A stretch of DNA of 64,000 nucleotides from Exiguobacterium acetylicum DSM 20416 (GTDB lineage Bacteria > Bacillota > Bacilli > Exiguobacteriales > Exiguobacteriaceae): assembly GCF_000702605.1 (NCBI RefSeq), contig NZ_JNIR01000001.1, positions 2,408,501 through 2,472,500 on the forward strand. Direction: 5' to 3'. Made by a program: the position numbers and the translations under genes. Shown here in pieces: positions 13,310 to 14,555 of this stretch (positions are counted from its first letter, which is position 1; every line of letters starts with the position of its first letter). The notes under the pieces are model-generated. The model had not been told where the DNA came from, made no database searches, and saw only the letters and a program-made list of their open reading frames with translations.

Positions 13310-13789
13310 ATGAATATTCTATTACTCGGTTTTACATTACTTAGCGGTGTGATGCTGAGCGCGCAGTCATCGATCAACGGTGCCTTCAGTCAAAAGGCAG
13401 GGGCTCTGGAAAGTACGTTCCTGACATTCTTCACCGGAATGCTGATTCTCGCACTCGCCATTTTGTTCTTTGGTCAAGGAAACGTCTTACTCTTGCTCGA
13501 AGCACCACGTTGGCAACTCAGTGCCGTCCTATTCGGTGTCAGTTATCTATTCCTAACGATTCTTGCTGTCCCGCAAATCGGTGTCACGGCAGCTAGTATC
13601 GCGACCGTCATCGGTCAACTCGCAGCAGGTATGGTCATTGACCACATCGGCGCGTTCGGTGGCGTCGTCGTCCCGCTCGACGGAAAACGTATGCTCGGTC
13701 TGCTTGCGATGCTTGCTGCGCTTTACTTCGTCTATCGCGGCAACACACGCAAAGATATGTCGGCTTCATCTGATTCGATGGCATCATGA
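13310..13789 (+). CDS. DMT-superfamily membrane protein, YdcZ/DUF606 family (second of pair)
   Basis: 159 residues, five hydrophobic segments, with the same layout as the preceding gene (GxxLSxxSSINGAFSQKAGALESTFLTFFTGML resembles EGAIYGELGNFVGKLESSFYNFFAGT). AAGGAGG stands before the ATG. The two probably form one transporter. A short hydrophilic tail (RGNTRKDMSASSDS) distinguishes it. A structured repeat begins within 6 bp of its stop codon. Confidence 0.82.
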   Translation: MNILLLGFTLLSGVMLSAQSSINGAFSQKAGALESTFLTFFTGMLILALAILFFGQGNVLLLLEAPRWQLSAVLFGVSYLFLTILAVPQIGVTAASIATVIGQLAAGMVIDHIGAFGGVVVPLDGKRMLGLLAMLAALYFVYRGNTRKDMSASSDSMAS

Positions 13790-13794
13790 CGATT

Positions 13795-13928
13795 GTCCTC
13801 ACGATTCGTTCACGCGCTTTTCTCAGGCGAGACACAAGCCAGTCTCGACTGTCATGGACAGTCGATTCGGGTCTTGTTTGTCTCTGACAGCTCAAGATCG
13901 TGCGCTTTTTCCTGTAGAAGTCGCGTGA
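13795..13928 (+). repeat. Structured intergenic repeat, copy 1
   Basis: About 130 bp, repeated in inverse orientation at 14427-14555. Shared cores include CAGGCGAGACACAAGCCAGT and GGGTCTTGTTTGTCTCTGAC. It can fold into a closed multi-stem structure: outer stem GTTCACGCG / CGCGTGAAC, middle stem GAGACA-CAAG / CTTG-TT-TGTCTC, inner hairpin GACTGTC-ATG-GACAGTC. It lies 3' of the DMT gene, in the sense direction. Confidence 0.7.
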
Positions 13929-13974
13929 ACAACGTGAGTCCGACTGTTTCTCATGGTCCATCAAAATAGAACAA

Positions 13975-14026
13975 AAAAAATCCGAAATGCCGAAGTGATG
14001 CTACTTCAGTGTTTCGGATTTTTTAA
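13975..14026. terminator. Bidirectional intrinsic terminator
   Basis: AATCCGAAA...TTTCGGATT stem with an inner GAAGT/ACTTC stem, A-run before and T-run after. On the minus strand it directly follows the stop of the 32-residue ORF at 14028-14126. Confidence 0.85.
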
Positions 14027-14027
14027 A

Positions 14028-14126
14028 TCAGTTGATGAACGTGAAAAGTGAAATAGCTAAGACCCCTTGAGCGAGTACTTGTAACAGGAATACGATTCGG
14101 GACAAATAAATGCACTTTTTCTTCAA
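14028..14126 (-). CDS. Putative 32-residue hydrophobic membrane peptide
   Basis: A short open frame starting TTG at 14124-14126, overlapping the stop of the DUF6440 gene as TTGA. It would read MKKKCIYLSRIVFLLQVLAQ and on to AISLFTFIN: a basic N-terminus followed by one hydrophobic helix of about 22 residues. No clear ribosome binding site is seen, so translation would rely on coupling. Its stop lies two bases before a strong terminator, which supports a real transcript end here. No family recognised; it could be chance. Confidence 0.4.
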   Translation of the reverse strand: MKKKCIYLSRIVFLLQVLAQGVLAISLFTFIN

Positions 14127-14299
14127 TTGATCGGCTTATCGATAACGACTTTACCTTCTTTGTCTAATAGCGGTGTCATTCCGTTCAAACCAAGTCCACT
14201 TGTCATTAAATAATTTACACCTGTTTCAGTGTCTACGACAATTTTGATAATACCACCACTTAGGTGTTGTTTTGATTTAAGTATGAATCGTTTACTCAT
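14123..14299 (-). CDS. DUF6440 family small protein
   Basis: 58 residues from the ATG at 14297-14299 (MSKRFILKSKQHL), with GAGAGGT 11 bases upstream; a GTG 36 bases further is in frame but lacks a box. The pattern KRF...GGIIKIVVDTETGVNYL...PLLDKEGKVVI is that of the DUF6440 family, small soluble beta-rich proteins of unknown role. It stands alone on the minus strand between two inverted copies of the structured repeat. Confidence 0.75.
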   Translation of the reverse strand: MSKRFILKSKQHLSGGIIKIVVDTETGVNYLMTSGLGLNGMTPLLDKEGKVVIDKPIN

Positions 14300-14426
14300 T
14301 ATTTTGTATGACCTCTCGTTCTTTCCGATTTCCACGTAAAATCATAACTTACTGTGTGAGGATAGGTTTAACGCTTTTTTACCAAGGTGTTGCCTATCTA
14401 CTTAGAACAGTCCTCACATTCCCACA

Positions 14427-14555
14427 CGACTCCTACAGGAAAAAGCACGATTCATCGTGCTGTCAGAGACAAACAAGACCCGATTCGGCTGTCTGTGACA
14501 GCCGGCACTGGCTTGTGTCTCGCCTGAGGAAAGCGGGTAGGAAATCGTGAGGACG
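14427..14555 (-). repeat. Structured intergenic repeat, copy 2 (inverted)
   Basis: Minus-strand copy of the element at 13795-13928. The inner hairpin reads GGCTGTC-ACA-GACAGCC here against GACTGTC-ATG-GACAGTC in copy 1, a paired A-T to G-C change that keeps the stem. The closing stem also keeps pairing with different bases (TTCCTAC / GTAGGA). The end carries GCACGAT-GA-ATCGTGC followed by TTTTT, a possible terminator for the UPF0303 gene upstream. Confidence 0.7.

What the first reader, a model, noticed from the sequence alone, without database searches (positions are those of the whole stretch)
13795..14555. Two inverted copies of a structured intergenic repeat with covarying stems
About 130-bp elements at 13795-13928 (+) and 14427-14555 (-). 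They share cores but differ in stems in a compensating way: inner hairpin GACTGTC/GACAGTC against GGCTGTC/GACAGCC, and different closing stems that both pair. Each copy directly follows the gene upstream in sense orientation (DMT transporter; UPF0303). This looks like a conserved RNA structure in 3' UTRs, or a mobile palindromic repeat of the bcr/BIME kind.
Basis: seen in the sequence. Interest (0 to 1): 0.66.

Follow-up and report, generated by a model that had tools for sequence, protein, structure and literature searches.

The report
Mobile hairpin repeat at gene ends
The two matching sequences are copies of a hairpin-forming DNA repeat that is scattered, often in dozens of copies, through many bacteria related to Bacillus, here mostly where genes end, and it behaves like a small mobile element rather than a regulatory RNA.

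Summary
In detail: two inverted copies of a ~105-nt core with pairing arms (a: 13795-13943 +; b: 14411-14554 -). They are two of 24 near-complete copies in their genome, of a family present in 19 of 19 genomes of the genus. A broader model finds it in 110 of 398 genomes of the class and, at a stricter cut, in 3 of 299 of a phylum sample, all of the own class and one the own genome. Rfam has no matching family.

Stems covary far beyond controls, but from Watson-Crick to Watson-Crick: G-U pairs are no commoner than A-C mismatches (29 v 34; 55 v 94), so selection for a sense RNA is not supported. Orientation to genes is not fixed (14 sense, 24 antisense in tandem gaps). Orthologous gaps may be empty, filled, reversed or hold another member. 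At three sites the element stands where a relative has a terminator-like hairpin.

Best reading: a non-autonomous mobile palindromic DNA repeat that settles at gene ends; its mover is unknown. New member of a known kind; no description found in the literature searched.

The parts
13795..13943 (+). Copy a: palindromic repeat, core plus outer arms (arm ends by eye)
   Evidence: R1 126 bits, R2 72.5 bits
13817..13921 (+). Conserved core of copy a, CTTTTCTCAGG...CCTGTAGAAGT, with the small hairpin plus T-run of the Exiguobacterium subfamily
14411..14554 (-). Copy b: palindromic repeat, core plus outer arms (GTCCTCAC/GTGAGGAC, ends by eye)
   Evidence: R1 123.9 bits, R2 78.9 bits
14429..14533 (-). 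Conserved core of copy b; its small hairpin followed by a T-run is terminator-like (14461-14444)
13975..14024 (.). Ordinary two-way terminator-like hairpin of the same gap, 3' of copy a
   Evidence: inverted repeat I2 with A and T runs
13310..13789 (+). YdcZ-type DMT transporter gene that precedes copy a
   Evidence: PF04657
14123..14299 (-). Small DUF6440 gene lying between the two copies
   Evidence: PF20037
14575..15045 (-).
   Evidence: PF03928

Best explanation
The two copies belong to a Bacilli-wide family of non-autonomous mobile palindromic DNA repeats. Each copy is one long imperfect hairpin: a core with the consensus UUCC-n-GGC...GCC...GGUC...UCC-n-GGAGU, a fixed T.G mismatch, a bulge and mismatched internal loops, ringed by variable arms that still pair. 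I infer that the hairpin is recognised and moved as DNA (single-stranded or cruciform) by an unidentified enzyme or recombination process. In Exiguobacterium new copies settle at gene ends, some in the place of a terminator-like hairpin; this type brings its own hairpin plus T-run and often a further hairpin in its 3' arm, so insertion may leave termination roughly intact. Shown by sequence: copy number, subfamilies, Watson-Crick covariation, polymorphic sites, replacement and reversal, gene-end preference in Exiguobacterium. Inferred: DNA-level mobility, terminator replacement as a rule, preserved termination. Not shown: the mover, current activity.
For: Copies: 24 near-complete in the own genome, 13 of them closely similar and in one larger unit; 19 of 19 genus genomes; 18 of 19 sister-genus genomes and 73 of the 360 other class genomes sampled; 4 to 127 matches in 25 genomes of 23 genera picked from those hits; 14 of 72,556 plasmid records. 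Structure: 94.3% of 2020 cells paired against 73.3% in shuffles, 425 double-change cells against 142.9, slid controls 37-57% paired. DNA-like covariation: outside the invariant T.G pair, 1808 Watson-Crick, 29 G-U, 34 A-C, 83 other cells; in 100 Exiguobacterium copies 3512, 55, 94, 110. Polymorphism: in 17 genomes the DMT gap is empty in 3 and otherwise holds sense, reversed, deleted or other-subfamily copies; a second gap holds different members in opposite orientations. Terminators: 7 of 7 empty sites hold a hairpin, 6 with an A/T run beside it; at L184/L074, L181/L095 and L139/L053 the element occupies the hairpin's place between conserved flanks. Y1 transposases do not track it: G015, with the most matches, has none.
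Against: No target-site duplication was identified in five filled/empty comparisons. No mover was linked; only Y1 transposases were sought. Many sites are shared by several species, so many copies are old. Retention of the T.G mismatch and bulge shows constraint that could also reflect RNA or protein-binding function. Gene ends hold terminators anyway, so the 7 empty sites alone say little, and the L074 hairpin has no clear T-run. Copy a stands beside, not in place of, a terminator-like hairpin. Outside Exiguobacterium the gene-end preference was not seen. Window copy b itself has no match in plasmids, and no relative of a Bacilli copy was found in phages.
Confidence: 0.75

Rival explanations
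1. A structured RNA element of 3' UTRs: the transcript folds into the conserved hairpin and stabilises, terminates or regulates the upstream mRNA.
For: Strong conserved pairing; both window copies and most Exiguobacterium copies lie just 3' of genes; the internal hairpin with a T-run looks like a terminator on the sense strand.
Against: 14 sense against 24 antisense in tandem gaps; opposite orientations at orthologous gaps; no G-U excess over A-C; the T-run hairpin is missing in the sister-genus and other Bacilli copies printed; no Rfam family.
Confidence: 0.12
2. Two-way terminator modules kept by selection on both strands, moving only by recombination: convergent genes need a hairpin that works in both directions, which would also disfavour G-U pairs.
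For: Preference for tail-to-tail gaps, 86 of 125; 6 of 7 empty sites carry ordinary terminator-like hairpins with an A/T run.
Against: An ordinary short hairpin does this without a ~105-nt class-wide conserved core, a fixed T.G mismatch and a bulge; copies in other Bacilli sit mostly in tandem gaps, some in divergent ones; copy a adjoins a separate terminator-like hairpin.
Confidence: 0.1
3. Covariation produced by palindrome correction (template switching between arms) rather than by any selection on structure.
For: Double changes with few single-sided intermediates.
Against: Correction alone should erase the T.G mismatch, which stays in 87 of 88 distinct copies and 99 of 100 Exiguobacterium copies, and the bulge; cores are conserved across the class.
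Confidence: 0.03

Closest known systems
REP/BIME and REPIN repeats with RAYT transposases (Enterobacteria, Pseudomonas)
   Same: Multi-copy extragenic imperfect palindromes, often in inverted pairs; structure probably relevant as DNA
   Different: REPs are 20-40 bp and GTAG/CGTC-tagged (title and abstract start of PMC3733652, search listing); this core is about 105 nt with other conserved ends, and no Y1 transposase is in the own genome
bcr1 of the Bacillus cereus group
   Same: Intergenic repeat of similar size (table passage of PMC2267715: 147 and 167 bp) with predicted structure
   Different: The title of the bcr1 paper (reference list seen) calls it specific to the B. cereus group; sequences not compared here
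YPAL/ERIC type 100-170 bp palindromic repeats (recalled)
   Same: Long palindromic, non-coding, mobile-like intergenic repeats; YPAL recalled as lying near gene ends
   Different: Proteobacterial; sequences not compared here
MRSC-65-2 motif (PMC11109978, passages)
   Same: Single long stem with strong covariation, dozens of copies per genome; the authors suggest a selfish element that may act as DNA
   Different: Described with a UYCCGG repeat and in diverse phyla; this family has UUCC..GGAGU ends and was found only in Bacilli in our samples; alignments not compared

Membership tests
Mobile palindromic intergenic repeat (kind) | Many dispersed copies, intergenic, folding as one hairpin | tested here: met
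Mobile palindromic intergenic repeat (kind) | Presence/absence at orthologous sites | tested here: met
REP/BIME | 20-40 bp unit with GTAG or CGTC tag | tested here: not met
   core about 105 nt; class-wide ends UUCC/GGAGU
REP/BIME | RAYT (Y1) transposase in the genome | tested here: not met
   none in the own genome; present in 9 of 19 genus genomes
MITE | Terminal inverted repeats | tested here: met
   arms pair; the 13-copy unit has GGCTGACTC..GAGTCAGCC-like ends in most of its copies
MITE | Target-site duplication and a parent transposon | tested here: inconclusive
   no duplication apparent in five filled/empty comparisons; no parent sought beyond Y1
Rfam RNA families | Reaches a family's gathering score | tested here: not met
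   relaxed search
bcr1 | Sequence match to bcr1 | not tested
   no bcr1 sequence was fetched
MRSC-65-2 | UYCCGG repeat in a long stem | not tested
   its alignment was not available; passages only
Sense-strand structured RNA | G-U pairs well above A-C mismatches | tested here: not met
   29 v 34; 55 v 94; no usable control set

The most novel reading that the evidence does not exclude
A class-wide mobile DNA hairpin that transposes into the hairpins of intrinsic terminators, swapping the tip of the host terminator for itself, driven by an enzyme that reads an imperfect hairpin (T.G mismatch, bulge) as DNA. This would be a mobile element specialised on terminator cruciforms and a source of terminator turnover across Bacilli.
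Probability: 0.2. Interest if true: 0.75.

Novelty: new member of a known kind. Interest (0 to 1): 0.5.

Why it matters
In 25 Bacilli genomes picked among the hits the family has 4 to 127 matches, 24 or more in 15 of them, yet no Rfam model matches it and the paper searches listed gave no description. Its near lack of G-U intermediates shows how strong covariation can come from DNA palindromes, which matters for automated RNA discovery. The filled/empty pairs make terminator turnover by mobile hairpins directly testable.

Tried and rejected
Sense 3'-UTR RNA: rejected as a rule by orientation, reversal at orthologous gaps and the G-U/A-C counts. Riboswitch or leader: the downstream gene is sense in only 16 of 137 copies and Rfam is silent. 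RAYT-driven REP: no Y1 transposase in 10 of 19 genus genomes, the own among them. Two exact 18-mer hits outside Exiguobacterium, of the 80 titled in the listing (L057, L071), are chance: no model match. Phages: no match; viral contigs: no exact core; window copy b in plasmids: no match. A third copy in the window: next match E 0.82. A tRNA control for the G-U count had only 2 tRNAs (4 G-U and 1 A-C of 24 pairs), too few to use. Paper searches gave no description of this family; the library lacks most subscription journals, and I recall having seen such sequences in Bacillus genomes.

Full report
What is there. The two copies lie at about 13795-13943 (+) and 14411-14554 (-), in the gap between a YdcZ-type DMT gene and an HbpS-like gene. 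Their 116-nt arms are 83% complementary. Both strands of both copies fold better than all 200 shuffles, z -3.98 to -5.02. The core is CTTTcCTCAGGCGAGACACAAGCC - variable tip - cGGGTCTTGTTTGTCTCTGACAGC - small hairpin - TTTTTCCTGTAGgAGT, ringed by variable arms that pair. The genus is inferred to be Exiguobacterium: of the 80 stretches titled all but two carry that name, and the E. sibiricum locus L037 has flanks identical to those of G004 of the same genus.

Copies in the genus. BLAST with copy a gives 23 places in the own genome. Model R1, built from 20 of them, gives 38 matches at E 0.1 or better: 24 near-complete copies (53 bits or more), three partial ones, ten opposite-strand shadows and one unclear (my sorting). 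Thirteen closely similar copies sit in a larger unit, most with GGCTGACTC..GAGTCAGCC-like ends and often a second hairpin in the 3' arm. Seven, the window pair among them, share the core but have other stems. Four more are a diverged subfamily in which AGACAC/GUUUGUCU becomes GGAGGU/ACCUUACC. R1 hits 19 of 19 genus genomes, 12 to 126 matches each, shadows included, and at E 0.05 15 of 19 genomes of the sister genus, weakly. The 23 sister-genus copies printed lack the small hairpin.

Reach. Model R2, from 23 sequences of several subfamilies, hits 110 of 398 genomes of the class at E 0.001, in 32 of 145 genera: 19 of 19 in the genus, 18 of 19 in the sister genus, 73 of the other 360. In a phylum sample, at E 0.0001, it hits 3 of 299: the own genome and two more of the own class, which serves as a check on false matches. 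In 25 genomes of 23 genera picked because they hit, it finds 4 to 127 matches each (at most 134 candidates scored per genome). One Bacilli copy (L309) has relatives on 14 of 72,556 plasmid records, of Priestia, Peribacillus, Bacillus, Paenibacillus and Niallia, and none in phages; window copy b has none on plasmids. Rfam shows no family at the element in the window or in 20 of 30 Bacilli loci, and no plausible one at a relaxed score.

Covariation, and of what kind. On 89 aligned copies (88 distinct, 23 pairs) 94.3% of 2020 cells pair against 73.3% in shuffles, 425 cells carry a double change against 142.9, and slid structures fall to 37-57%. The number of pair types is only slightly raised (54 against 49.2; 11 of 500 shuffles reach it). 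The alignment was fitted to the model, which leans towards the structure, and the rows are related. One pair is T.G in 87 of 88. Without it, 1808 cells are Watson-Crick, 29 G-U, 34 A-C and 83 other. In 100 Exiguobacterium copies with the R1 structure the counts are 3512, 55, 94 and 110; the A-C surplus would be wobble on the other strand, if anything. A sense RNA should favour G-U; here it does not, so the pairing is best read as a property of DNA or of both strands. My tRNA control was too small to use.

Place and orientation. Of 227 matches from two searches 155 near-complete ones were kept and 137 were distinct; orthologous copies were not collapsed. For the 125 with a called gene on both sides there are 86 convergent, 38 tandem and 1 divergent gaps. 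Other gaps of at least 30 bp in the window and 98 loci of up to 8 kb are 61 convergent, 273 tandem and 105 divergent (odds ratio 13.7, rows not independent, genes from my own simple caller). In tandem gaps 32 of 38 copies are nearer the stop than the start codon, but 14 are sense and 24 antisense. In convergent gaps orientation cannot tell. For other Bacilli I gave 34 of the 38 matches to a cruder caller; 32 had genes on both sides: 21 tandem, 7 convergent, 4 divergent; in the tandem ones 9 sense and 12 antisense, 10 nearer the stop and 11 nearer the start. So gene-end placement is a feature of Exiguobacterium, and sense orientation is not a rule.

Turnover. Seventeen genomes have both genes of the window gap. 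G008, G014 and G015 have only an ordinary terminator-like hairpin. G004, G013 and G018 have a copy in one orientation, G012 the core reversed inside similar arms, G003 an internally deleted core. G010, G011 and G017 hold another subfamily at the place of copy a. G001 and G006 keep copy a and hold that subfamily, reversed, on the other side. G000, G002, G009 and G016 have a and b (b internally deleted in G009). A second gap holds one member in L149, L035, L298 and L302 (L035 and L298 look identical) and a different, reversed one in L097 and L110. Many other sites are shared between species. Filled against empty: 20 comparisons, 7 distinct sites by my reading; each empty site holds a hairpin, 6 of 7 with an A/T run beside it, L094 a weaker one and L074 without a clear run. 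Gene ends usually do. More telling, at L184/L074, L181/L095 and L139/L053 the element stands between the same flanks where the relative has that hairpin; L063/L094 is less clear and L133/L053 is an internal deletion.

Mechanism. I infer a mobile palindromic DNA repeat whose imperfect hairpin is the recognition signal. The retained mismatch and bulge argue against mere palindrome correction, though correction may sharpen the stems. Y1 transposases, which move REP repeats (established knowledge), are missing in 10 of 19 genus genomes, the own and the match-richest G015 among them, so the mover is unknown. The small hairpin with T-run of the Exiguobacterium type could let a copy stand in for a terminator; this is inference.

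Known work. Seen: PMC3733652 (search listing), PMC2267715 (passages), PMC11109978 (passages), PMC8632094 (passages), PMC12306157 (one passage), PMC4666352 (outline and abstract). None of what I saw describes this family. Paper searches.

Noticed in passing
window 14036-14110: Between the two copies lies a stretch with faint likeness to another repeat of the genome (82% over 33 bases, E 0.009); in G001 and G006 an intact other-subfamily member stands near this place. It may be a decayed third copy, but the model does not support it.
   Followed up: partly
L012:1680-1860, L130:1682-1775 and relatives: A second repeat (AGCAAGAGCGACCCTGCAGCGAAGCG...) sits 3' of some copies in several loci, in convergent order; its reverse complement resembles the family core and R2 matches it weakly in L130 (E 3.6e-5), so it may be a far subfamily.
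   Followed up: partly
window 14123-14299: A DUF6440 gene lies between the inverted copies in G000 and, by the printed sequence, in G002, G009 and G016; the gap is shorter without it in other close relatives.
   Followed up: no
L039, L062, L067, L085, L087, L119 and window: Paired copies in one gap stand tail to tail in these Exiguobacterium loci; but in other Bacilli L309 has three and L318 two copies in the same orientation.
   Followed up: partly
L318:1285-1352: A Bacillaceae-1 RNA (RF01690) lies between two family copies of one Bacilli genome.
   Followed up: no
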